Under the pieces are notes generated by a model that ran no database searches, was not told the DNA's origin, and saw only the letters and a list, made by a program, of their open reading frames with translations. Both the position numbers and the translations under genes were made by a program. Shown in pieces: positions 33,979-45,911 of a stretch of 64,000 bases of DNA. The DNA comes from Dietzia timorensis. Lineage in GTDB: Bacteria > Actinomycetota > Actinomycetes > Mycobacteriales > Mycobacteriaceae. Position 1 is the stretch's first letter. Every line of letters starts with the position of its first letter. The stretch spans positions 2,666,001 through 2,730,000 of the forward strand of contig NZ_CP015961.1 of NCBI RefSeq assembly GCF_001659785.1. The letters are read 5' to 3'.

Positions 33979-34953
33979 CTAGGTCCCGGGCGCGCGCGGG
34001 GGCGCCGCGCCCATCTTGACCAGCGCGTCGACCCGCTCCCCGATGGGCGGGTGCGTCGCGAATGCGCCGGCGAATTTCGCCGGGTTGAAGAACGCGAGCG
34101 CGCCGACGGTCTTGTAGAACTTCTCGGCGCCCTTCTGGTTGTCCGCGCCGGACTGGTAGCTGTAGCCATCGATCTTGGCCAGCGCGCTCGCCATCGCGGT
34201 GGGATTGCGGGTGAATCGCACCGCGTTCGCATCGGCCTGCGATTCGCGCTTGCGCGACATGAAGGCGTTGCCGACGCGGGAAAGGATCGGCGCGACGAGC
34301 AGGAAGATCAGCGACAACACGATGATGACGATCGCCAGCGGATTGGCCTTGCCGTTATTGCCTCCGCCGCCGCGCCGTCCGTAGAACATGCGCGAGGACA
34401 AACCCGCGATGATCCCCACCGTCGACGTCAGCGCGATGAGCCTGGTCATCGCCACCGAGTCGCCGGTGTAGACGTGGCTGAGCTCGTGCGCCATGACCGC
34501 CTGGACCTCGGAACGGTCGAGCGTCTGCAGGATCTCCGCCGTGAATACGACGCGGGCGTGGCCCTTACGGTTACTGAGCGCGTAGGCGTTGGCGACCCCG
34601 GTGCCGTGCTGAATGTAGACATCGGGCACCTTCATCCCCGAGGCGATCGACATCTCCTCGGCGATGTTGTAGAGCTGCCCGCTGGTTACCCGCTCGTGGT
34701 CGCCACCCACAGAGCCCATGACGACGGACGACGAGAGCAGCATGACAAAAGCCAGGATGACTGCGGCGACGACCACTGCGACCCCGCCGTAGAGAAGAAG
34801 GTACCGCAGCAGTTCTTCGTTGGTGACATTGCTCGGCAGGGCGACGAAGAGCATCGCCGCGAGGATGGTCAGCGCGAGGAGGAGGAAATTGACCAGCCAC
34901 GCGACGAATACGCCCCGGCGGAGCCGTTTGAGTTCGGAGGAGAAGGACGCCAT
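33979..34953 (-). CDS. M48 family membrane metalloprotease HtpX-like
   Basis: 324 aa. Two N-terminal membrane helices (about 16-36 and 50-78) precede the zinc motif HELSH in VMAHELSHVYTGDSVAM (about 154-158). Two further hydrophobic segments surround a Gly/Asn-rich loop (about 180-235), followed by the downstream ESQADANA zinc-ligand region. It probably degrades damaged membrane proteins. It lies 25 nt after lemA; LemA/M48 pairs are a common arrangement. Confidence 0.9.
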   Translation of the reverse strand: MASFSSELKRLRRGVFVAWLVNFLLLALTILAAMLFVALPSNVTNEELLRYLLLYGGVAVVVAAVILAFVMLLSSSVVMGSVGGDHERVTSGQLYNIAEEMSIASGMKVPDVYIQHGTGVANAYALSNRKGHARVVFTAEILQTLDRSEVQAVMAHELSHVYTGDSVAMTRLIALTSTVGIIAGLSSRMFYGRRGGGGNNGKANPLAIVIIVLSLIFLLVAPILSRVGNAFMSRKRESQADANAVRFTRNPTAMASALAKIDGYSYQSGADNQKGAEKFYKTVGALAFFNPAKFAGAFATHPPIGERVDALVKMGAAPPRAPGT

Positions 34954-34978
34954 CAGAGGTTAACGCGACCTTCGCGCT

Positions 34979-35554
34979 CTAGAACTGGACGCCGGGCGCG
35001 CGACGAGCGGCTTCGTCCTCGACCTCGAAGAGCTCGGCGGCCTTGAAGTTGAACATCCCGGCGAAGATGTTCGACGGGAAGACCTCGCGCTTGGTGTTGT
35101 AGGAGTTGACGGCCTCGTTGTAGTGCTGGCGCGCGAACGACACCTTGTTCTCGGTGGTGGCGAGCTCTTCCTGCAGCGACAGGAAGTTCTGGCTCGCCTT
35201 GAGGTCCGGGTACTGTTCGGCCACGGCGTTGACGCGAACCATGGCGTCCTTATAAGCGGTTTCCGCAGCCTTCGCATCGCGAACCTCGCCGGTCTCGTGG
35301 GCCCGCTGCGCGGCGACACGCGCGTCCGTGACCCGCTGCAGTGTCTCGCTCTCGTGCTTTGCGTAGCCCTTCACGGTCTCGACGAGGTTGGGGATGAGGT
35401 CGGCGCGGCGCTGGAGCTGGGTGTCGATCTGCGCCCAGGCCTCCCGCGCGTTGTTCCGCATGCGGACGAGGCCGTTGTACATACCGATGGCGACCGCCAC
35501 CAATACCACCAACAAGATGATGACGACGATCAGAATCACGAGCCCGGTACCCAT
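34979..35554 (-). CDS. LemA family protein
   Basis: 191 aa. It has one N-terminal membrane helix (about 4-24) and the LemA helical domain with MYNGLVRMRNNAREAWAQID, QLQRRADLIPNLVETVKGYA and ARQHYNEAVNSYNTKREVFP. The function is not well defined. Genomic pairing with HtpX-type peptidases suggests membrane quality control. It is the first gene of a two-gene unit with the M48 protease. Confidence 0.92.
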   Translation of the reverse strand: MGTGLVILIVVIILLVVLVAVAIGMYNGLVRMRNNAREAWAQIDTQLQRRADLIPNLVETVKGYAKHESETLQRVTDARVAAQRAHETGEVRDAKAAETAYKDAMVRVNAVAEQYPDLKASQNFLSLQEELATTENKVSFARQHYNEAVNSYNTKREVFPSNIFAGMFNFKAAELFEVEDEAARRAPGVQF

Positions 35555-35690
35555 GTGGAACTGCCTTTCACCGCACGGAAGTGGTCTACGTCGAACCTAA
35601 CACGGTCGCCACCTCCCCGTGGGGAATGATCGTTCGCCCCCGGGGCCGCGCAGGCAGCGCCGTGGCGTCTTGATTCGTGCAAATCAGTAG

Positions 35691-35718
35691 TTGACATCAG
35701 GCGATGTCTACATAAGAC
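35691..35718 (+). promoter_or_regulatory. Promoter with overlapping operator for the BVMO operon
   Basis: A perfect -35 TTGACA (35691-35696) with a possible -10 TAAGAC (35713-35718). An imperfect palindrome, TGACATCA-GG-CGATGTCT (35692-35709), covers the -35 and spacer. The same half-site forms a perfect palindrome at 44014-44035. Repressor binding would block the polymerase here. Confidence 0.6.
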
Positions 35719-35791: not shown

Positions 35792-37333
35792 ATGGACACC
35801 GAGAACGACAGGATGTCGGACGAAATTCTCGACGTCGCGGTAATCGGCGCGGGGTTCGGCGGCATCTGCACCGCCAAGCGGCTGCTCGACGAGGGCACCA
35901 CGAACTTTCTCGTCTTCGACCGCGCCACGGAGGTCGGCGGCACCTGGCAGGCGAACACCTACCCGGGCGCGCAGTGCGATATCCCGGCGGCGCTGTACTC
36001 GTTCTCCTTCGCCCAGAAGCCCGACTGGTCGCGTCTCTATCCCCTGCAGCCGGAGCTGCTTTCCTACCTGCGCGAGGTGTGCGAGACGTTCGGCATCGAG
36101 CCCCATCTGCGGCTCGGCCACGAGATCCTCGACATGCGTTGGGACGAAACCGGTCAGCACTGGACGCTCGCGACCTCCGAGGGCACGTGGCGGGCGCGCG
36201 TGGTCGTCGGCGCGTTCGGCCCGTTCAGCGAACCGTCGACGCCGAGGTTCGAGGGCCTCGACGACTTCGAGGGCACCGTCCTGCACTCCGCGCGCTGGGA
36301 CCACACCAAAGACTGGAGCGGCAAGCGTATCGGGGTCATCGGCACGGGTGCCTCGGGCGTGCAGATCATTCCGCAGGCGGTGCGCGTGGGCAGCTCGCTC
36401 ACCGTTTTCCAGCGCACCCCGACGTGGATCTTCCCGCACCCCGATCAGCCAATCCCCTCCGCGCTGCAGAACCTCTTCGCGCGCGTCCCCGCCACCCAGC
36501 GGGCGCTGCGCCGCACCGTCGACGTCGTCCTCGAGTCCATGGTCTACGGCCTCGTGTTCCGCCCGGCCATGCTCAAGGGGATGGAGGCCATCGCGAAGGC
36601 GCACCTGCGGCGCCAGGTTCCCGATCCGGAACTGCGCGAAAAGCTCACCCCGGACTACATGTTCGGCTGCAAACGGCCGACGTTCTCGAATGCCTACTTC
36701 CCCGCCATGGCGGATGCGAAGACCGACGTCATCACCGAACCGATCCGGCGGATCGTGCCCACCGGCGTCGAGACCGCGGACGGCACGGTCCACGAACTCG
36801 ATGTCCTCGTGCTCGCGACGGGGTTCACGGTCTCCGGGCATCCGTTCTTTTCCCGCGTTCATGACGCCGGAGGCCGCTCCCTCGCCGAGAGCTGGGATCC
36901 CACGCCCCTGTGCTACCTGGGCACCGCGGCGGCCGGATTCCCCAACCTGTTCCAGATCCTCGGCCCGAACGCGGCGACGTACACCTCGATGGTCGTCGTC
37001 ATCGAGGCGCAGGTCGACTACATCATCAGCGCGCTGCGGGAGATGAAGGCGAACGGGTTGACGAGCCTCGAGGTGCGCGGCGACGCGGTGGAGCGGTTCG
37101 TCGACGAGATCGACACCAAGCTGTCGCGCTCGGTGTGGAACGTCGGCGGATGCGCGTCCTATTACATCGACGCCACCGGCCGGAACATCGCCTGGTTCCC
37201 CGGGTTCTTCCGCCAGTTCCGCGCGCGCACCCGGCGCATATTCCTCCCCGACTTCGTCCTCGGGGCCGGCAGCGACGTCGCCGAAGATACGTCCATCGAT
37301 CCCACCGAGACCAAGGAGCCCAGTAGGCCATGA
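35792..37333 (+). CDS. Flavin-containing Baeyer-Villiger-type monooxygenase
   Basis: 513 aa FAD/NADPH enzyme. It has an FAD Rossmann motif (GAGFGG, 19-24), a BVMO fingerprint F-x-G-x3-H-x3-W-D (FEGTVLHSARWD, about 159-170) and an NADPH Rossmann motif (GTGASG, about 189-194). It would insert oxygen next to a carbonyl, turning ketones into esters. AAGGAG lies 8 nt before the ATG. It is the first gene of a five-gene operon in which every junction overlaps. The substrate is unknown; the mycobacterial MymA family is a relative. Confidence 0.9.
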   Translation: MDTENDRMSDEILDVAVIGAGFGGICTAKRLLDEGTTNFLVFDRATEVGGTWQANTYPGAQCDIPAALYSFSFAQKPDWSRLYPLQPELLSYLREVCETFGIEPHLRLGHEILDMRWDETGQHWTLATSEGTWRARVVVGAFGPFSEPSTPRFEGLDDFEGTVLHSARWDHTKDWSGKRIGVIGTGASGVQIIPQAVRVGSSLTVFQRTPTWIFPHPDQPIPSALQNLFARVPATQRALRRTVDVVLESMVYGLVFRPAMLKGMEAIAKAHLRRQVPDPELREKLTPDYMFGCKRPTFSNAYFPAMADAKTDVITEPIRRIVPTGVETADGTVHELDVLVLATGFTVSGHPFFSRVHDAGGRSLAESWDPTPLCYLGTAAAGFPNLFQILGPNAATYTSMVVVIEAQVDYIISALREMKANGLTSLEVRGDAVERFVDEIDTKLSRSVWNVGGCASYYIDATGRNIAWFPGFFRQFRARTRRIFLPDFVLGAGSDVAEDTSIDPTETKEPSRP

Positions 37334-38226
37334 GTACCGAAACGCAGTCGAATACCCATACGGACGAGTCCTACTCCATCGAGGCGCGCGACGTGCATTT
37401 CGAATGGGACGGGATGCCGCTGCACTACGTTCCCGGCCAGCCGATGGCGGTGCACATGTACAACGCGATGCACCTCATCCTCCCCGAGGGTGAGCGCGCG
37501 ATGTCCTCCGCGCTCGCCGAGGCGCTGCCCTACATCGAGGATCCGCGGCTGGAGGAGGAGGTGCGCGGGTTCATCGGGCAGGAGACCCAGCACGCCGACT
37601 CGCACCGCGGCGCCCGCGAGTACCTCGCCGACCTCGGGCTCAACGTCGAGATGGGCGAGAAAATGGAGTGGATGGTCGACAACGTGCTCGGCTACAAGGG
37701 GCTCACCGGCCGCGCCCGCAAGGCGTGGCTGTGCGAGCGGCTCGGGCTGTTCGCCGCGATGGAGCACTACACCGCCGTCGTCGGGAACTGGTTCCTCGTC
37801 AGCGGCGGCCTCGAGGCGAACGACACCTACCCGGAGATGATGGACTTGCTCAAGTGGCACGGCGCCGAGGAGGTCGAGCACCGCAACGTCGTCTTCGATG
37901 CCTTCCAGTACGTCGACGGCTCGTACGCGCGGCGCGTGCGCACCTCGATTATCGCGAGCGTGATGCTCGGCGCCCTGTTCTTCTCGACGGCGCGGGACCT
38001 GTACAGGTCCGATCCGGAGCTGCCGAAGAAGAAGGAGCACTGGCTGCTGTCGTTCCGTAAGTCCATCAAGGCGAACGCGATCCCGGACGCGAAGTTCTTC
38101 ATCACCGAGATCCCGGTGTACCTGCGCCCGAAGTTCCACCCGGCGTCCTTCGGCAGCATCGACATGGCCGTGGAGTACCTGTCGCAATCCACCGCCGTGC
38201 ACCGGCACGAGGAGCAAGAGCAGTGA
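37330..38226 (+). CDS. PF10118 'metal-dependent hydrolase' with ferritin-like di-iron residue pattern
   Basis: 298 aa, of the COG3687/PF10118 family, usually named predicted metal-dependent hydrolase. The residues visible are E54, E85-x2-H88, E145 and E181-x2-H184. This spacing of single Glu and ExxH motifs on helices is that of ferritin-like di-iron carboxylate oxygenases, not of classical hydrolases. A hydrophobic segment near 205-222 may touch the membrane. It overlaps the BVMO and the reductase gene by 4 nt each. I infer an iron oxygenase fed by the next gene product; this is untested. Confidence 0.78.
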   Translation: MSTETQSNTHTDESYSIEARDVHFEWDGMPLHYVPGQPMAVHMYNAMHLILPEGERAMSSALAEALPYIEDPRLEEEVRGFIGQETQHADSHRGAREYLADLGLNVEMGEKMEWMVDNVLGYKGLTGRARKAWLCERLGLFAAMEHYTAVVGNWFLVSGGLEANDTYPEMMDLLKWHGAEEVEHRNVVFDAFQYVDGSYARRVRTSIIASVMLGALFFSTARDLYRSDPELPKKKEHWLLSFRKSIKANAIPDAKFFITEIPVYLRPKFHPASFGSIDMAVEYLSQSTAVHRHEEQEQ

Positions 38227-39326
38227 CCAAGTCCGCCGGCACGCGCGTCACAGCCGCGATGCGCATGTTCGACATCGCCGCGGACGGATACCGCCAGGTT
38301 TTCGCCCGCAGCCCACTGGCGCCGATGCTCTCGCGGCCCAGCCCGGTGCGGCGCACCGGGTACGACATCCCGGTAACCGTGACGCGCGTCCGGCGGCAGG
38401 CCCCCGACGTCGTCTCGTTTGAGCTGACGCCGGACAGCGGGAACCCCGTTCCCCTGTGGCGGCCCGGGGCGCACCTCGACGTGTTCCTTCCCTCCGGGCT
38501 GCAGCGCAGCTACTCGCTGTGCGGCGACCCCGAGGACCGCAGCCACTTCCGCATCGCGGTGCGGCGGATCTCCGCCGAGGCCGGCGGCGAGGGCGGCTCG
38601 GTACAGATGCATGCGCTGGCCGAGGGCGACCGGCTCACGGTGCGCGGGCCCCGCAACGCGTTCCCGTTCCGGCAGACGGAGAACTACTTCTTTATCGCCG
38701 GCGGCATCGGGATCACCCCGATCCTGCCGATGGTTCGGCACTCCGAGCGCGAGGGCGCGAACTGGAAGCTCGCCTTCCTCGGGCGCTCCCGCGACTCGTT
38801 GCCCTTCCTGGACGAGCTCGCCGAGATCGATGCGGGGCGCGGGCGCGTCGAGGTGCGCACCGACGACGAGCTCGGTCCCCCGTACATCCCCGAGGTCCTC
38901 GCCGGCGCCGACGCGGCCTCGGCGGTGTACATGTGTGGGCCGCCGTCGCTCATGGACACCGCGCGCATGGTGCTGCCGGACGTCGACCCCGCGGCGACGC
39001 TGCACACCGAAAGGTTCTCGCCGCCGGAGGTCGTCGGCGGCAAGCCGTTCACGCTGCTCATCGCCGGTTCGAGCGAGAAGGTGCAGGTGGCGGCGAACGA
39101 GACCACGCTCGACGCGATCCGCCGCGTCGAGCCCGGGGTGAGCTACTCCTGCCGGCAGGGATTCTGCAGCTCGTGCATGACCCGCGTGATCTCCGGCGAG
39201 GTCGACCACCGGGACCACCGGCTCACCGATTCCGAACGCTCCGAATACATGCTCACCTGTGTATCTCGGGCGGCCGGCTCCACTCTGACCGTCGACCTCA
39301 ATAACGAAGGACGTTTACTGCCATGA
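38223..39326 (+). CDS. Flavin reductase with C-terminal [2Fe-2S] ferredoxin domain
   Basis: 367 aa, phthalate dioxygenase reductase/VanB type. The flavin-binding RSYSLCG lies at about 97, the NAD(P)H-binding GGIGITPILPM at about 160-170, and the plant-type [2Fe-2S] ligands at Cys310, Cys315, Cys318 and a Cys near 350 (SCRQGFCSSC). It passes electrons from NAD(P)H to an oxygenase. It overlaps both neighbours by 4 nt, so its likely partner is the di-iron protein just upstream. Confidence 0.9.
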   Translation: MTKSAGTRVTAAMRMFDIAADGYRQVFARSPLAPMLSRPSPVRRTGYDIPVTVTRVRRQAPDVVSFELTPDSGNPVPLWRPGAHLDVFLPSGLQRSYSLCGDPEDRSHFRIAVRRISAEAGGEGGSVQMHALAEGDRLTVRGPRNAFPFRQTENYFFIAGGIGITPILPMVRHSEREGANWKLAFLGRSRDSLPFLDELAEIDAGRGRVEVRTDDELGPPYIPEVLAGADAASAVYMCGPPSLMDTARMVLPDVDPAATLHTERFSPPEVVGGKPFTLLIAGSSEKVQVAANETTLDAIRRVEPGVSYSCRQGFCSSCMTRVISGEVDHRDHRLTDSERSEYMLTCVSRAAGSTLTVDLNNEGRLLP

Positions 39327-40801
39327 CTCAAGTACACGCGCGCCCGGACGTCGCTTTCGACTCGCCCTCCGACGTCATACGTGATGTTCAATCCGCACGG
39401 TGGGCGCAGAAGCGCTGGCAGGACATGGGTTTCGCGAAGCGGCGCAAGGTGCTCGACGCGTGGCGGTCCGACCTCGCACGGAATGCGGACTCGATCGCGC
39501 GGACGATGAGCGACGAGATGGGCAAGCCGCATTCGGACGCGATGTTCGAGATCGTCATGTCGCTGGAGCACCTCGCGTGGGCGGCCGCGAACGCCGAGAA
39601 GGTGCTCGGGCGACGCAAGGTCGCGACGAGCGCGCTGACGAAGAACCTGCGGGCGACGGTCGAGTACCTGCCGTACGGGGTGGTCGGGGTGATCGGGCCG
39701 TGGAACTACCCGGTGTTCACGCCGATGGGGTCGATCGCGTTCGCGCTCGCCGCGGGAAACACGGTCGTGTTTAAACCGAGCGAGTGGACGCCGCGCACCG
39801 GTCAGGCGATTATCGCCTCGTTCCAGCGTGCCAGCGGCGAGTTCGACGTCGCGCACTGCGTGACCGGCGGCGGTGACGTCGGCGAGGCGCTGTGCCGCTC
39901 GGGCGTCGACAAGATCGGGTTCACCGGTTCGACGGCGACGGGCAGGAAGATTCTCGCGACGTGCGCGGAGAACCTCACGCCGGTGTTGTGCGAATGCGGC
40001 GGCAAGGATGCGCTGGTCGTCGACGCCGACGCCGATGTCGCGGCCGCCGCGGACGCCGCGGTGTGGGGCGCGATGTCGAACGCCGGACAGACGTGCCTCG
40101 CCGTCGAGCGCGTGTACGTGCACGCCGACGTCGCCGACGAGTTCGAAAGGCTCGTCACCGCGGAGGCGGGCCGGCTGCGGGCGGCGGCGGACGGGTCGAC
40201 GCAGATCGGCGCGATGACGATGCCGCGGCAGGTGGACATCGTGCGCTCGCACGTGGAGGACGCGCTCGCCAGCGGCGGGCGAGCGCTGGTCGGCGGCCTG
40301 GATTCGATCGACGGGCAGGTCGTCTCCCCCATCGTGTTGACCGATGTTCCGGAGGATTCGCCGGCCGTGGTCGAGGAGACGTTCGGCCCGACGATGACGA
40401 TCCGCCGCGTCGCCGATATGGACGAGGCTGTCCGCCTGGTAGAGGCCAGCGAGTACGGGCTCGGGCTTACCGTGTTCTCGCGCCGCAACGGCCGGGCGAT
40501 CGCCGACCGGATTACGAGCGGGAACGTGGCGATCAACGGGTTCGTGCTGCACGCGGCGGTGCCGACGCTTCCGCTTGGCGGCACCAAGCAGTCCGGGTTC
40601 GGGCGCGTGCATGGGCCGGACGGGCTGCGGGAGTTCGCCTATTCGCGTTCGTGCACGGAAACGCTCGTGCAGCTTCCGCTCCCGCTGACCTCGTTTAGGC
40701 GCGGGCCGAAGGTCGACCAGCTGATCAGCACGGTGATCGAGCAGGTCCACGGCAGGGCCGGGAAGGTGCGCGCCCTGCTCGACGGGAACGGGAAGCCCTG
40801 A
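39323..40801 (+). CDS. Aldehyde dehydrogenase family protein
   Basis: 492 aa NAD(P)-dependent ALDH. Visible are the cofactor motif GPWNYPVFTP, KPSEWTP, GFTGSTATGRKI, the catalytic Glu in LCECGGKDA and the nucleophilic Cys in NAGQTCLAVERVYV (about 257). The C-terminal half has EETFGPTMTI. It oxidises aldehydes to acids, and the CoA ligase at 44130 could activate the acid. Its start overlaps the reductase stop (ATGA). Confidence 0.92.
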   Translation: MTQVHARPDVAFDSPSDVIRDVQSARWAQKRWQDMGFAKRRKVLDAWRSDLARNADSIARTMSDEMGKPHSDAMFEIVMSLEHLAWAAANAEKVLGRRKVATSALTKNLRATVEYLPYGVVGVIGPWNYPVFTPMGSIAFALAAGNTVVFKPSEWTPRTGQAIIASFQRASGEFDVAHCVTGGGDVGEALCRSGVDKIGFTGSTATGRKILATCAENLTPVLCECGGKDALVVDADADVAAAADAAVWGAMSNAGQTCLAVERVYVHADVADEFERLVTAEAGRLRAAADGSTQIGAMTMPRQVDIVRSHVEDALASGGRALVGGLDSIDGQVVSPIVLTDVPEDSPAVVEETFGPTMTIRRVADMDEAVRLVEASEYGLGLTVFSRRNGRAIADRITSGNVAINGFVLHAAVPTLPLGGTKQSGFGRVHGPDGLREFAYSRSCTETLVQLPLPLTSFRRGPKVDQLISTVIEQVHGRAGKVRALLDGNGKP

Positions 40802-41649
40802 TGGGGATTTTTCGTCGGGGCGCGTCGTATGACCTCGACGGCCGTAGAGTCCTGATCACCGGCGCCGGGAACGGCATCGGCGCGGAGCTCGCCCGCAGCT
40901 GCCACGCGCGCGGGGCGAAGGTCGTGGCCGTCGATATCGACGCCGACGCGGTCGCGCGGCTCGCTACCGAGCTGGGGCCGCGCGCGGTTTCTGCGCGCGC
41001 GGATGTGACCGCGCCCGAGGACATGCGGGCCGCGACCGAGCTGGCGCTGGAAAGCTTCGGCGGGCTCGACGTGGTGATCGCCAACGCCGGAGTGACCCCG
41101 GATCCCGGGATGCTGCGGTCGACGGATCCGGCCGTGGTGCGGCGGGTGATCGATATCAACGTCTTCGGCGTGCTGCACACGGTGCAGACGGCGACCGATG
41201 CGCTCGCCGCGAGCGGTGGGCACGTCCAGATCACCGGATCCTGTTCGGCTTTTATGCCGGGTCCGGGCGGCGCCGCCTACATGATGTCGAAGGCGGCGCT
41301 CGAGTCGCTCGCGCGTTCGCTGCGGCTTGAGGTAGCCGGTTCGGGGATTTCCGTGGGGATCGCGATGCTCGGGATGATCGACACCTCGCTCGCGGCGAAG
41401 ACGTTGGACGACGACCCGTACGGCCAGACGCTTGGCGCGCAGCTGCCGTCGGTGCTGAGTTCGCGCATGTCCCCGCACGACGCAGCCGAGGCGATCTGCG
41501 GGCAGATCGAGAAACGCGCGGCGCGCAAGGTTATCCCCACCCCGTGGCTCCCGCTCGACCTCGCGCGCGGCGCGCTGCCCTACCTCGAGGGGCTCACGTT
41601 GAAGAGCAAGGACCTGGCGCGGGCGCTCGCCGAGCTCGACGCCCGGTAG
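40801..41649 (+). CDS. Short-chain dehydrogenase/reductase
   Basis: 282 aa classical SDR. It has the cofactor motif TGAGNGIG (about 20-27), NAGV, and the catalytic Ser in GSCSAF with Tyr160 and Lys164 (YMMSK). The acidic residue after strand 2 (VVAVDIDAD) favours NAD(H). It probably interconverts a secondary alcohol and a ketone, which would feed the BVMO. The ATG overlaps the ALDH stop by one base. Last gene of the operon. Confidence 0.92.
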   Translation: MGIFRRGASYDLDGRRVLITGAGNGIGAELARSCHARGAKVVAVDIDADAVARLATELGPRAVSARADVTAPEDMRAATELALESFGGLDVVIANAGVTPDPGMLRSTDPAVVRRVIDINVFGVLHTVQTATDALAASGGHVQITGSCSAFMPGPGGAAYMMSKAALESLARSLRLEVAGSGISVGIAMLGMIDTSLAAKTLDDDPYGQTLGAQLPSVLSSRMSPHDAAEAICGQIEKRAARKVIPTPWLPLDLARGALPYLEGLTLKSKDLARALAELDAR

Positions 41650-41670
41650 CCCGGCCCTAGTCGGCCGGGC
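41649..41670. terminator. Convergent terminator between SDR and TetR genes
   Basis: GCCCGGCC (41649-41656) and GGCCGGGC (41663-41670) with a 6-nt loop. It lies between two convergent genes and overlaps the TetR stop codon. Confidence 0.55.
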
Positions 41671-42322
41671 CGGGGAAGTCGACGCGCGCGACGATGGAGA
41701 TGAGGTAGGCGATGTACGCGGAGACGTCCTCCGCCGAGACACCCTTGGGGTCGAGCAGCCAGTCCTGATACACGAAGGCGAGGCCGCCGAAGAGGGCCAG
41801 CGGATCCCAGCGCGCGGTGAGTTCGTCATTGCGGGACAGGTTTCCTCCGGCGGCGGCGAAGGCGTCCTTGAGGCCACCGACGATGGCGGTGAAGCGGCCT
41901 ATGAGTTCGCGGCCGCGGGGGTAGAGCTCGCTGGTGACCGACTGGACGAACAGGATCTCGCCCCGGCGCGGGTCCTCGACGAGGAAGTCGGTAAACGCGG
42001 ACGCGATGTGCGAGATCGCGTCGGGGGGCTGCGGCGGCATGGACGCCACGGCCTCCTGCAGTGTTGCCTCGGCGTCCTCGACGACGAGGTCGAAGATCTG
42101 CACGAGGAACTTGTCGCGGTTATCGAAGCTCTCGTAGAAATAGCGTTCGGTGAGGCCTGCGCGGCGGCACACCCCGCGCATCGTCACCGCCCCAGGCCCC
42201 TCCGCGGCGAGCAGGTCGAGCCCGGATTCGATGAGCTTGAATCGTCGCTCGGCCTTGCGATCGCCGGGGTAGACGCCGCGCCAGCGGCGCCCGTCGGAGG
42301 AGCGTTGGGACGTTTCTACCAT
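41657..42322 (-). CDS. TetR family transcriptional regulator
   Basis: 221 aa. The N-terminal helix-turn-helix (about 30-75: TMRGVCRRAGLTERYFYESF) is followed by a variable ligand-binding C-terminal domain. It lies between two lipid-oxidation units that share a palindromic operator (35692-35709 and 44014-44035), so it is the natural candidate regulator, probably sensing an acyl-CoA or pathway intermediate. No copy of the operator is seen in its own short upstream gap (42323-42356). Confidence 0.9.
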   Translation of the reverse strand: MVETSQRSSDGRRWRGVYPGDRKAERRFKLIESGLDLLAAEGPGAVTMRGVCRRAGLTERYFYESFDNRDKFLVQIFDLVVEDAEATLQEAVASMPPQPPDAISHIASAFTDFLVEDPRRGEILFVQSVTSELYPRGRELIGRFTAIVGGLKDAFAAAGGNLSRNDELTARWDPLALFGGLAFVYQDWLLDPKGVSAEDVSAYIAYLISIVARVDFPGPAD

Positions 42323-42815: not shown

Positions 42816-43976
42816 CTACAGGGAGCGGCTGACGAGTTCTTTCATGATTTCGTTGGTGCCGCCGTAGATCTTCTGAACGCGGGCGGCCGCGTAGGCGCGG
42901 GCGATGGGGTATTCCATCATGTAGCCGTAGCCGCCGAAGAGCTGAAGGCAGCGATCGACGACGCTGCACTGCATGTCGGTGGTCCACAGCTTGGCCATCG
43001 ACGCGGTCGTCGGGTCGAGCGTGCCGGCATCGGCGAGGCCTTGGGCGACGTCGACCATCGCGCGGCCGGCGAAGACCTGCGATTTGCAGTCGGCGAGCTC
43101 GTAGCGGGTGTTCTGGAAATCGCCGATCGGACGGCCGAAGGCCTGGCGTTCGCGGGTGTAGTCGACCGCCTCGAGCACGGAGAACTCCGCGGCGGCGACG
43201 GCGGTGGAGGCGATGATGAGGCGCTCGCGGCCGAGCTGGCCCATGAGCTGGAAGAAGCCCTGCCCCTCCTGCGCGCCGAGGAGGTTGTCCACGGGCACGC
43301 GGACATCGTCGAAGAACAGCTCGCGCGTGTCCTGCCCGTGCATGCCGATCTTGTGCAGCACGCGGCCGCGCTCGAAGCCGGCGAGGTCTTTCGTCTCGAC
43401 GATGATGAGCGAAATGCCCTTCGCCTTGGCCTCGGGGTCGGTCTTGCACACGACGATGATGACGTCGCTGTGGGTGCCGTTGGTAATGAAGGTCTTTGAC
43501 CCGTTGATGACGTACTCGTCGCCCTCGCGCTTTGCGGTCGTGCGGATCGACTGGAGGTCGGAGCCAGCGGACGGCTCCGTCATGGCGATGGCGCCGACGA
43601 ATTCGCCCGAGGCGAGCCGCGGGAGGTAGCGCTTCTTCTGCTCCTCGGTCCCGAAGTTGAGGAAGTAGTGCGGCACGATCGTCGAGCCGACGGAGTAACC
43701 GAACGCGGTGTCGCCGCTGAGGGTGATCGCGTGCTGCACGGCAGCCTCGTGGCTGAACGTGCCCCCGATCCCCCCATATTCGGCGGGGATGTCTGCGCAC
43801 AGCAGGCCGGCGTCCCCGGCCTTGTTCCACAGCTCGCGGTCTACCTTCTGCTCATCGGCCCATCGTTCCTGGTGAGGGACTAATTCCTTCTGTGAGAACT
43901 CGAAGGCGTGCTCCATGAGCTCGCGGCGCTCGTCGGTGAGCCAGGCCGGTCGATAGTCAGGAAAAAGCGTTTTCAT
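42816..43976 (-). CDS. Acyl-CoA dehydrogenase, LCAD-like
   Basis: 386 aa flavoenzyme of beta-oxidation. The FAD-binding AMTEPSAGSDLQSI, FITNG, QLFGGYGYM and a C-terminal YGGTNEIMKELV are present. The Glu usual in the Y-E-G-T position is Gly, as in long-chain and isovaleryl-CoA dehydrogenases, where the base sits on an earlier helix; here the Glu in VLEAVDY is the candidate. GGGGAGG lies 8 nt before the ATG. It is divergent from the acyl-CoA synthetase across the shared palindrome. Confidence 0.92.
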   Translation of the reverse strand: MKTLFPDYRPAWLTDERRELMEHAFEFSQKELVPHQERWADEQKVDRELWNKAGDAGLLCADIPAEYGGIGGTFSHEAAVQHAITLSGDTAFGYSVGSTIVPHYFLNFGTEEQKKRYLPRLASGEFVGAIAMTEPSAGSDLQSIRTTAKREGDEYVINGSKTFITNGTHSDVIIVVCKTDPEAKAKGISLIIVETKDLAGFERGRVLHKIGMHGQDTRELFFDDVRVPVDNLLGAQEGQGFFQLMGQLGRERLIIASTAVAAAEFSVLEAVDYTRERQAFGRPIGDFQNTRYELADCKSQVFAGRAMVDVAQGLADAGTLDPTTASMAKLWTTDMQCSVVDRCLQLFGGYGYMMEYPIARAYAAARVQKIYGGTNEIMKELVSRSL

Positions 43977-44129: not shown

Positions 44130-45911
44130 ATGACCATGGCCACGACACTTTGCCACTACTTCCAGCAACGAGTCGCCGAGAACGGCGACGAGATTGCCAT
44201 CAAAAATGCGGACGGCAGCGTTCGCCTCACCTGGTCCGAATACGGTGCGCAGGTTCGACGAGCTTCGGCGGCGCTGGCCGCCGAGGGGCTGCGTTCCGGC
44301 GAGGTGGTGGCGATCATGCTGAGCAACCGTCCGGATTTCCACGTCATCGACGCGGGCGTCATGCACCTCGGCGCGATCGCTTACTCGGTATATAACACCA
44401 GTGCGCCCGAGCAGATCGACTACCTGTTCAGCAATTCGCGCCCGAAGATCGTGTTCACCGAGAAGCAGTTTGAGGGCAAGGTGCGCGAGGCGCTCGCCAT
44501 GCGCAAGGCCGAGGGTGACGCCTCCACCCAGCGGGTCGTCGTCATCGACTCCGCCGAAGAGGGCGAGGGCCTCGAGCCTTTCCTCGCGCAGGGCTCGGAC
44601 GACTTCGATTTCGACGGCGCCTGGCAGGCAGTCGACCCCGGCGAGGTGCTCACGCTGATCTATACCTCGGGCACCACGGGCAACCCGAAGGGCGTCGAGC
44701 TCACCCATTCGAACCTACTCTACCAATTGGGAGTCATCTCCGCGGTCGTGGGCGATCTCAGCAACGGCCGGGTCATCTCCTATCTTCCGGACGCGCACCT
44801 AATCAACCGCTGGATCTGCCAGTACGCGCCGATGTACTTCAACATCGAGGTCACCGACGTCGACGATCCGAAGATCCTCGTCGATGTGCTCGGCCAGGTG
44901 CATCCGACGTTCTTCGTCGCCGTGCCGATGCTCTGGTACAAGATCGTCGGAAAGGTGAAGGCGACGATCGACGCCGAAGAGGGCGTCAAAGGCAAGCTGC
45001 TGCGCTGGGCCACCGGTGTCGGCGAGCGCCGCGCCGACGCGCGCGTCGCGGGCACGTCCCCGTCGCGTCGCGATGCGCTCGCCTATGCGGTCGCCGACAA
45101 ACTCGTGCTGTCGAAGCTGCGCGAGAAGCTGGGCATGGATCAGCTCACCGCGGCGGTGTCGGGCGCGGCCCCGATCGACGCGAGCACCCTCGTGTTCCTG
45201 TCCTCGCTCGGCATCGACGTCCTCGAGGCCTGGGGCATGTCGGAAACCTCGGCGGTGACGACGGTGAACCCCGTGGCCAAGCCCAAGTTCGGCACGGTCG
45301 GCAAGGCCATCCCGGGCACTGAGGTCTCCCTCGACGAGGACGGCGAGGTCCTCGTGCGCGGCGGCGGCGTGATGCGCGGCTACCACCGCGATCCGGAGAA
45401 GACCGAGGACACGATCGACGAGGACAACTGGGTCCACACCGGCGATATCGGGCAGCTCGACGACGAGGGCTACCTCACGATCATCGACCGCAAGAAGGAA
45501 CTGATCATCAACGACGGCGGCAAGAACATCTCGCCGGCCAACATCGAGGGCGCGCTCAAGGCCGCGAGCACACTCATCGGCTCGGCCGTCGCCATCGGCG
45601 ATCGCCGCCCGCACATCTCCGCGCTCATCACCCTCGACCCGGACGTCGCCACCGAGTTCGCGGCGAAGGCGGGCGTCGAGGGCACGGACCCGGCGGATCT
45701 CGCGATCCACCCGGGGGTGCGCGACGCCATCGCCACGGCGGTCGAGGCGGCCAACGCGCGGCTGTCGCGGGTCGAGCACGTGCGCACGTGGGAAATCCTG
45801 CCGACGTTCTGGGCTCCCGGCAGCGACGAGCTCACGCCAACGCTCAAGCTGCGCCGGGTGCCGATCACGCGTAAGTACGCCGAGCAGATAGACGCGCTAT
45901 ACGCGAAGTAG
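44130..45911 (+). CDS. Long-chain acyl-CoA synthetase (FadD)
   Basis: 593 aa ANL-superfamily ligase. The AMP-binding signature is YTSGTTGNPKGVELTH (about 175-190); GWG-type AWGMSETSA, the TGD motif HTGDIGQL and the hinge/lysine region DRKKELIINDGGKNISP are present. It activates fatty acids to acyl-CoA at the membrane face, using ATP and CoA. The closest relatives are FadD15-like long-chain ligases. The ATG at 44130 is followed by another 6 nt on; either could be used. Confidence 0.93.
   Translation: MTMATTLCHYFQQRVAENGDEIAIKNADGSVRLTWSEYGAQVRRASAALAAEGLRSGEVVAIMLSNRPDFHVIDAGVMHLGAIAYSVYNTSAPEQIDYLFSNSRPKIVFTEKQFEGKVREALAMRKAEGDASTQRVVVIDSAEEGEGLEPFLAQGSDDFDFDGAWQAVDPGEVLTLIYTSGTTGNPKGVELTHSNLLYQLGVISAVVGDLSNGRVISYLPDAHLINRWICQYAPMYFNIEVTDVDDPKILVDVLGQVHPTFFVAVPMLWYKIVGKVKATIDAEEGVKGKLLRWATGVGERRADARVAGTSPSRRDALAYAVADKLVLSKLREKLGMDQLTAAVSGAAPIDASTLVFLSSLGIDVLEAWGMSETSAVTTVNPVAKPKFGTVGKAIPGTEVSLDEDGEVLVRGGGVMRGYHRDPEKTEDTIDEDNWVHTGDIGQLDDEGYLTIIDRKKELIINDGGKNISPANIEGALKAASTLIGSAVAIGDRRPHISALITLDPDVATEFAAKAGVEGTDPADLAIHPGVRDAIATAVEAANARLSRVEHVRTWEILPTFWAPGSDELTPTLKLRRVPITRKYAEQIDALYAK

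What the first reader, a model, noticed from the sequence alone, without database searches (positions are those of the whole stretch)
37330..39326. A 'metal-dependent hydrolase' that looks like a di-iron oxygenase paired with its own reductase
The PF10118 protein shows E54, E85-x2-H88, E145 and E181-x2-H184, the residue order of ferritin-like di-iron enzymes. Its gene overlaps by 4 nt the gene for a flavin/[2Fe-2S] reductase of the type that feeds oxygenases. I infer a two-component oxygenase, not a hydrolase.
Basis: partly seen in the sequence, partly recalled or inferred. Interest (0 to 1): 0.78.

Follow-up and report, generated by a model that had tools for sequence, protein, structure and literature searches.

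The report
Misnamed hydrolase is likely di-iron oxygenase
A bacterial protein family filed as "metal-dependent hydrolases" carries conserved metal-binding residues typical of enzymes that use two iron atoms and oxygen, and in one branch its genes sit next to their own electron-supplying partners, so the name is probably wrong and the enzymes probably insert oxygen.

Summary
The PF10118 gene (37330-38226) overlaps a phthalate-dioxygenase-reductase-type gene (38223-39326) by 4 nt. One residue is misnumbered: position 54 is Gly; the conserved Glu is E55. In 91 of the 92 PF10118 copies found in 396 actinobacterial genomes, E55, Q84, E85, H88, H92, E145, H177, E180, E181 and H184 are constant except in one truncated frame. 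The predicted structure is a confident helical bundle whose listed matches are ferritin-like dimetal proteins, though remote. Genomic evidence is strongest: among close actinobacterial relatives 34 of 52 have this reductase just downstream and 8 others a ferredoxin plus ferredoxin reductase; 0 of 39 distant copies in the census have either. Four proteobacterial copies of 33-35% identity lack it. Two unrelated electron chains beside one family fit an O2-activating enzyme, not a hydrolase. The nearest relatives (9 of 9 fetched at about 50% identity or more) also carry a Baeyer-Villiger monooxygenase and a short-chain dehydrogenase, suggesting subterminal oxidation (inferred). Iron, activity and substrate are untested. 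No paper making this assignment was found in the library searched.

The parts
37330..38226 (+). PF10118 protein (298 aa), proposed ferritin-like di-iron oxygenase component
   Evidence: Pfam PF10118 E 3.4e-66; invariant Glu/His set; AF2 model pLDDT 93.3
37492..37494 (+).
   Evidence: 91 of 91; coordinate; helix
37579..37605 (+). Q84-E85-x2-H88-x3-H92 on helix 72-101: E85 and H88 proposed ligands, Q84 second sphere, H92 a further histidine of unknown role
   Evidence: each 91 of 91; coordinates; helix
37762..37764 (+). E145, proposed ligand on helix 127-157
   Evidence: 90 of 91, exception truncated L209; coordinate
37855..37881 (+). W176-H177-x2-E180-E181-x2-H184 on helix 168-195: H177, E181, H184 proposed ligands, E180 second sphere
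   Evidence: W176, H177, E181, H184 90 of 91; E180 91 of 91; coordinates
38223..39326 (+). Phthalate dioxygenase reductase (PDR/VanB)-type reductase, GTG start: RSYS motif 38505-38516, GGIGITP 38700-38720, C-x4-C-x2-C...C [2Fe-2S] motif 39150-39260
   Evidence: Pfam FAD_binding_6, NAD_binding_1, Fer2; PDB 2pia E 6.3e-56; motifs
38223..38226 (+). GTGA: stop of PF10118 overlapping the start of the reductase
   Evidence: a possible start codon overlaps the PF10118 stop in six of six relatives looked at (L066, L128, L129, L144, L145, L146), but in L066 the record annotates the reductase start 38 nt further on
35792..37333 (+). Type I Baeyer-Villiger monooxygenase-like flavoprotein (FEGTVLHSARW), first gene of the chain
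   Evidence: Pfam FMO-like; PDB cyclohexanone/phenylacetone/steroid monooxygenases, E down to 7.5e-76; motif (fingerprint recalled)
39323..40801 (+). Aldehyde dehydrogenase, overlapping the reductase by 4 nt
   Evidence: Pfam Aldedh E 4.5e-119; overlap
40801..41649 (+). Short-chain dehydrogenase/reductase (TGAGNGIG, YMMSK), proposed alcohol-to-ketone step
   Evidence: Pfam adh_short; motifs
41657..42322 (-). TetR-type regulator, possible regulator of the operon (inferred)
   Evidence: Pfam TetR_N
44130..45911 (+). AMP-binding acyl-CoA ligase, possible downstream step (inferred); the Dietzia alimentaria operon is followed by one too
   Evidence: L145

Best explanation
The PF10118 protein is the oxygenase component of a two-component, O2-dependent system and the next gene is its electron donor. 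NADH reduces the reductase's flavin; electrons pass through its [2Fe-2S] domain to a dinuclear iron site in a ferritin-like four-helix bundle (E55, E85, H88, E145, E181, H184, plus H177 and possibly H92). The diferrous site activates O2 and oxygenates an organic substrate. In the closest relatives the product probably goes to the SDR (alcohol to ketone) and the BVMO (ketone to ester), then by hydrolysis, ALDH and an acyl-CoA ligase to beta-oxidation: subterminal oxidation of a lipophilic substrate. Shown by computation: residue constancy, placement on four helices, remote fold resemblance, recurrent reductase neighbourhood, its replacement by a ferredoxin chain in one clade, recurrent operon content. 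Inferred: iron as the metal, O2 activation, electron transfer, the reaction, substrate and pathway order.
Confidence: 0.8

Rival explanations
1. Ferritin-like dimetal protein that is not an oxygenase: a rubrerythrin-like peroxidase, ferroxidase, oxidase or desaturase using the same electrons.
For: The most frequent second Pfam match is Rubrerythrin (24 of 78); an R2-like ligand-binding oxidase is Foldseek's first match. The fold does not tell these apart.
Against: Catabolic-looking operon with BVMO, SDR and ALDH; oxygenase-type electron donors of two unrelated kinds.
Confidence: 0.12
2. True metal-dependent hydrolase as annotated, with the reductase serving another enzyme.
For: The Pfam name and the product names in plasmid records. 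In Acinetobacter sp. KCTC 92772 the next gene is an alpha/beta hydrolase and no reductase is near.
Against: Constant ferritin-like residue pattern on four helices; no hydrolase family matched by more than one of 78 members among the 25 of 32 families shown; two unrelated redox chains next to it; no P450 or Rieske motif in those loci. Other oxygenases do occur in a few of them: a PhyH protein in L170 and luciferase-like proteins in four loci.
Confidence: 0.05
3. Halogenase of the CylC/NocO kind rather than an oxygenase.
For: PF10118 shares QExxH with CylC (Q84 is 91 of 91; motif from PMC12101540, passages).
Against: The published family motifs are ExxQExxH and HxxDExxH (PMC12871659, passages); PF10118 has F81 in 89 of 91 and E180 in 91 of 91. 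The window context looks catabolic.
Confidence: 0.03

Closest known systems
AurF/CmlI arylamine N-oxygenases (PF11583)
   Different: No significant PF11583 match for the window protein; Q84 where AurF has D135; constant H92 where an AurF-family alignment has Phe; reductase genes alongside in one clade
CylC/NocO dimetal halogenases
   Same: QExxH motif and an AurF-like HxxxExxH
   Different: F81 instead of Glu in ExxQExxH, E180 instead of Asp in HxxDExxH; constant H92
Soluble di-iron monooxygenases (MMO, toluene and propane monooxygenases)
   Different: One oxygenase gene, no second subunit or effector gene among the ten genes scanned; PDR-type reductase with the ferredoxin domain at the C-terminus; extra histidines
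Phthalate dioxygenase reductase / VanB reductases
   Same: The window reductase is of this type (2pia E 6.3e-56)
   Different: These serve Rieske oxygenases (recalled) or are fused to P450s (6laa, 6kbh); here the neighbour is PF10118

Membership tests
PF10118 (Metal_hydrol) | Score above the Pfam gathering cut-off | tested here: met
   223.9 bits against 33.2
Ferritin-like di-iron oxygenases/oxidases | Two ExxH motifs plus two further carboxylates, spread over four helices and conserved in the family | tested here: met
   helices from a model, distances not measured
Ferritin-like di-iron oxygenases/oxidases | Ferritin-like fold | tested here: inconclusive
Ferritin-like di-iron oxygenases/oxidases | Binds two iron ions and activates O2 | not testable with these tools
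   needs purified protein
Two-component (reductase-fed) oxygenases | NAD(P)H reductase or ferredoxin chain encoded with the oxygenase | tested here: met
   window, and 34 + 8 of 52 close census loci; 0 of 39 distant census loci, so true of this clade only
Two-component (reductase-fed) oxygenases | Electron transfer from the reductase to the oxygenase | not testable with these tools
   needs biochemistry
AurF/CmlI (PF11583) | Pfam PF11583 match | tested here: not met
   window protein matches only PF10118 at E up to 1; 12 of 78 members match AurF weakly, best E 0.0074
AurF/CmlI (PF11583) | Residue pattern with the third histidine, HxxxExxH | tested here: met
   H177-x3-E181-x2-H184, each 90 of 91
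CylC/NocO dimetal halogenases | Motifs ExxQExxH and HxxDExxH | tested here: not met
   F81 in 89 of 91 and E180 in 91 of 91; motifs from PMC12871659
Soluble di-iron monooxygenases (multi-subunit) | Second hydroxylase subunit and effector protein in the operon (recalled) | tested here: not met
   none of the ten genes scanned in and around the operon is one
Metal-dependent hydrolases | Relation to a hydrolase family of known mechanism | tested here: inconclusive
   no such family recurs among the 25 of 32 Pfam families shown; hydrolysis itself not tested

The most novel reading that the evidence does not exclude
PF10118 is a separate class of ferritin-like di-iron oxygenase with an eight-residue, four-Glu/four-His core (H92 and H177 both at or next to the metals), distinct from the 2His/4Glu hydroxylases and the 3His AurF type. 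It has recruited at least two unrelated electron-delivery chains, and in Dietzia and Rhodococcus it is the single-gene C-H hydroxylase that starts a subterminal oxidation pathway (hydroxylase, SDR, BVMO, ALDH). A widespread 'hydrolase' family would then be a reservoir of simple oxygenases.
Probability: 0.35. Interest if true: 0.85.

Novelty: new variant of a known kind. Interest (0 to 1): 0.7.

Why it matters
PF10118 proteins occur in 43 of 396 sampled genomes of the window's phylum, in 98 of 121 genomes of its own family, and in spirochaetes, a Nostoc and proteobacteria, up to 17 copies in one genome, under a Pfam name that hides an oxidative function. If they are di-iron oxygenases, the annotation should change, a new set of metal-site residues becomes available for the study of O2 activation, and operons with one oxygenase gene plus one reductase gene become simple candidates for C-H oxidation work. 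The claim is directly testable with two purified proteins.

Tried and rejected
Sequence search of the PDB with the single protein and with the A2 profile found no relative (best E 0.42 and 0.065, the latter a designed protein). The A2 profile in 117 cyanobacterial genomes found 2 clear members and 8 genomes with only weak matches (E 0.03-0.86), so no CylC-like link by sequence. AurF family in the window's genome: no match at E up to 0.001. Paper searches: 'PF10118' (1 paper, on lanthipeptide proteases by title, not opened), 'COG3687' (0), metal-dependent hydrolase combined with diiron, ferritin-like, AurF, Baeyer-Villiger or ferredoxin reductase, and 'UCP07580/PIRSF007580/IPR016516/Metal_hydrol' (0): no title listed assigns the family (the papers listed in 61 and 92 were not opened). 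The library holds open-licence PMC papers only.

I considered that the reductase might serve a neighbouring P450 or Rieske oxygenase; a motif search in the 42 redox-paired loci found neither (flanks about 1.5 or 4 kb, more for the window). A PhyH protein (L170) and luciferase-like proteins (four loci) do occur near some. On Acinetobacter plasmids a PF10118 gene lies beside a ferredoxin-P450-FAD oxidoreductase set, where the redox genes probably serve the P450; these were not counted. The 34% limit between close and distant copies was chosen after seeing the data; with 34.5% the counts (PDR type only) are 33 of 51 and 1 of 40; the tree test does not use it. One of the 92 matches (G038:C1:3532784, in L142) was left out of the census by oversight; it has the reductase next to it. 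L209 (truncated frame) was dropped from the tree. Outside the census, two distant copies have remote reductase-like frames in reach: L057 (24% identity, E 7e-7) and L143 (27-28%, E 5e-14 and 2e-19). Loci fetched twice: L145 = L002 (taken from equal contig length 158133), L128 = L034, L129 = L061, counted once in the 9 of 9; the 97-row and 86-row sets still hold a few double loci (L003/L077 in both; L007/L076 in the former). No ligand distances could be computed, as no coordinates are given out.
Full report
OBSERVATION. The PF10118 gene is 37330-38226 and the reductase gene 38223-39326, overlapping in GTGA. PF10118 matches at 3.4e-66. The genome carries one copy. It is very probably a Dietzia: a genome listed as the same genus (G458) has a PF10118 contig of the same length, 158133, as NZ_AGFF01000025.1 of Dietzia alimentaria. 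The two genes belong to a five-gene chain, BVMO / PF10118 / reductase / ALDH / SDR, joined by 4-nt or 1-nt overlaps.

CONSERVATION. In 97 rows from actinobacteria, spirochaetes, a Nostoc and proteobacterial plasmids (a few loci are in twice), E55, Q84, E85, H88, H92 and E145 are 97 of 97, and H177, E180, E181 and H184 96 of 97. One search found 92 copies in 43 of 396 genomes of the phylum; 91 were read and aligned without choice by score (the one left out by oversight lies in L142). E55, Q84, E85, H88, H92 and E180 are 91 of 91; E145, H177, E181 and H184 are 90 of 91, the exception being L209, a 169-aa truncated frame. This holds in the most divergent group (L193-L209, 48-141 bits with the A2 profile, 23-31% identity). 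Nine of the 13 invariant columns of an 86-row alignment are Glu or His (P = 7e-6). One protein's motifs alone would not have shown this.

WHAT THE PATTERN IS. E / QExxHxxxH / E / HxxEExxH. A 2025 paper on NocO describes AurF as having a 3-His/4-carboxylate site, naming D135, H139, E196, D226 and H230, and CylC homologues with QExxH and HxxDExxH (PMC12101540, passages). The spacing between successive Glu in the window protein (30, 60, 36) resembles AurF's (35, 60, 31, from recalled numbers E101, E136, E227). An AurF-family alignment made here shows invariant E / ExxH / E / HxxEExxH columns, and hhalign sets its Phe against H92. That comparison puts both motifs in register but at 3.7% probability, so homology to AurF in particular is not shown. 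Scanned one by one against Pfam, 78 members give Rubrerythrin (24), AurF (12) and Ferritin_2 (8) as the most frequent second matches, then COQ7 (4, tied with the unrelated Cbl_N); all are weak, and unrelated families reach like E-values in single members.

REDOX PARTNERS. The window reductase is of phthalate dioxygenase reductase type (2pia, E 6.3e-56) with RSYS, GGIGITP and C-x4-C-x2-C...C. In the 91-locus census, 52 copies of at least 34% identity to the window protein (window included) form the close group: 34 have a reductase of this type downstream on the same strand (6 of them 580-930 nt away with a gene's room between), 8 have a ferredoxin reductase downstream, 10 have neither; of 39 distant copies none has either in the flanks read, 1.5 or 4 kb. 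The limit was set after seeing the data; at 34.5% the PDR counts are 33 of 51 against 1 of 40. In all 8 ferredoxin-reductase loci a 62- or 63-aa ferredoxin with C-x5-C-x3-C...CP sits between the two genes; one was tested by Pfam (PF13370), as was one reductase (PF07992, PF14759). In the other 83 loci the motif gave two matches, both in frames that look spurious. On a 90-row tree the three states need 3 changes (shuffled mean 34.1, 0 of 200 as low), and the ferredoxin set is one clade with SH-aLRT 100 (quick method; long branches are flagged). No P450 haem-loop or Rieske motif was found in a long frame in these 42 loci. A possible start codon overlaps the PF10118 stop in six of six relatives looked at, though in L066 the record puts the reductase start 38 nt on.

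LIMITS OF THE PAIRING. Outside the census, 4 of 9 plasmid copies at 33-50% identity have the reductase, all 4 actinobacterial (L066, L067, L071, L211); L068 from Tsukamurella and four proteobacterial copies (L069, L070, L149, L210) have none in the 4-6 kb read. Two distant copies, L057 and L143, have remote reductase-like frames near. So the pairing is a trait of an actinobacterial clade; other members would have to use general electron donors or work otherwise.

OPERON AND PATHWAY. PF10118, reductase, BVMO and SDR are together in 9 of 9 distinct fetched loci at about 50% identity or more (window, L002, L034/L128, L061/L129, L066, L144, L146, L166, L176); ALDH is near in at least 4 (window, L002, L066, L146). 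Nearby are acyl-CoA ligases (window 44130-45911; L145, L146), enoyl-CoA hydratase/3-hydroxyacyl-CoA dehydrogenases (L144, L146) and an acyl-CoA dehydrogenase (window 42816-43976). In another close locus the SDR is fused to an alpha/beta hydrolase (L154), which could supply the ester-cleaving step. This reads as hydroxylation, alcohol oxidation, Baeyer-Villiger oxidation, hydrolysis, acid formation and beta-oxidation (inferred). Against a single substrate: some loci carry a carboxylic-acid-reductase-like protein upstream (L158 tested by Pfam; same cluster in L159 and L165), and one is next to a gene annotated as limonene-1,2-epoxide hydrolase family (L071).

VERDICT. A dimetal ferritin-like enzyme is very likely (my estimate 0.9), a reductase-fed oxygenase likely (0.8), the subterminal hydroxylase role plausible (about 0.4). 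The name hydrolase has no support here beyond annotation. The window protein fails the Pfam test for AurF and the motif test for CylC-type halogenases, so I file it as its own family that works like them. Novelty in print was checked only in the open-licence library; for PMC12101540, PMC8406957 and PMC12871659 (a preprint) I read passages, for all others listings only.

Noticed in passing
window 35690-35711: Imperfect palindrome GTTGACATC-N4-GATGTCTAC, overlapping a TTGACA, between the LemA gene and the BVMO start: a possible operator for the nearby TetR-type regulator.
   Followed up: no
G428: A 3.6-Mb genome of the same taxonomic family with 17 PF10118 matches, an unusual expansion.
   Followed up: no
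L073 and L148 (Acinetobacter plasmids): PF10118 beside a ferredoxin-P450-FAD oxidoreductase set, a TetR gene, thioesterases and a Tn3-like ISAcsp1 transposase. 54 of 74 plasmid records matched are Acinetobacter, and 21 of the 40 rows shown have the same match figures, suggesting a mobile cassette.
   Followed up: partly
L158, L159, L165: A 1099-aa AMP-binding plus reductase-domain protein (carboxylic-acid-reductase-like; Pfam run on L158 only) upstream of PF10118: an aldehyde may be involved in that clade.
   Followed up: partly
L143 (G408:C12:106000-122000): Two tandem distant PF10118 genes followed by BVMO-like, SDR-like and two remote reductase-like frames; BVMO-like genes also adjoin distant copies in L084, L153, L175, L181 and L182.
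   Followed up: partly
L071 (Rhodococcus fascians pGS01): PF10118, PDR-type reductase and a gene annotated as limonene-1,2-epoxide hydrolase family in a row: epoxidation is possible in that branch.
   Followed up: no
window 33979-35554: LemA and M48 peptidase genes side by side on the minus strand just upstream of the operon.
   Followed up: no
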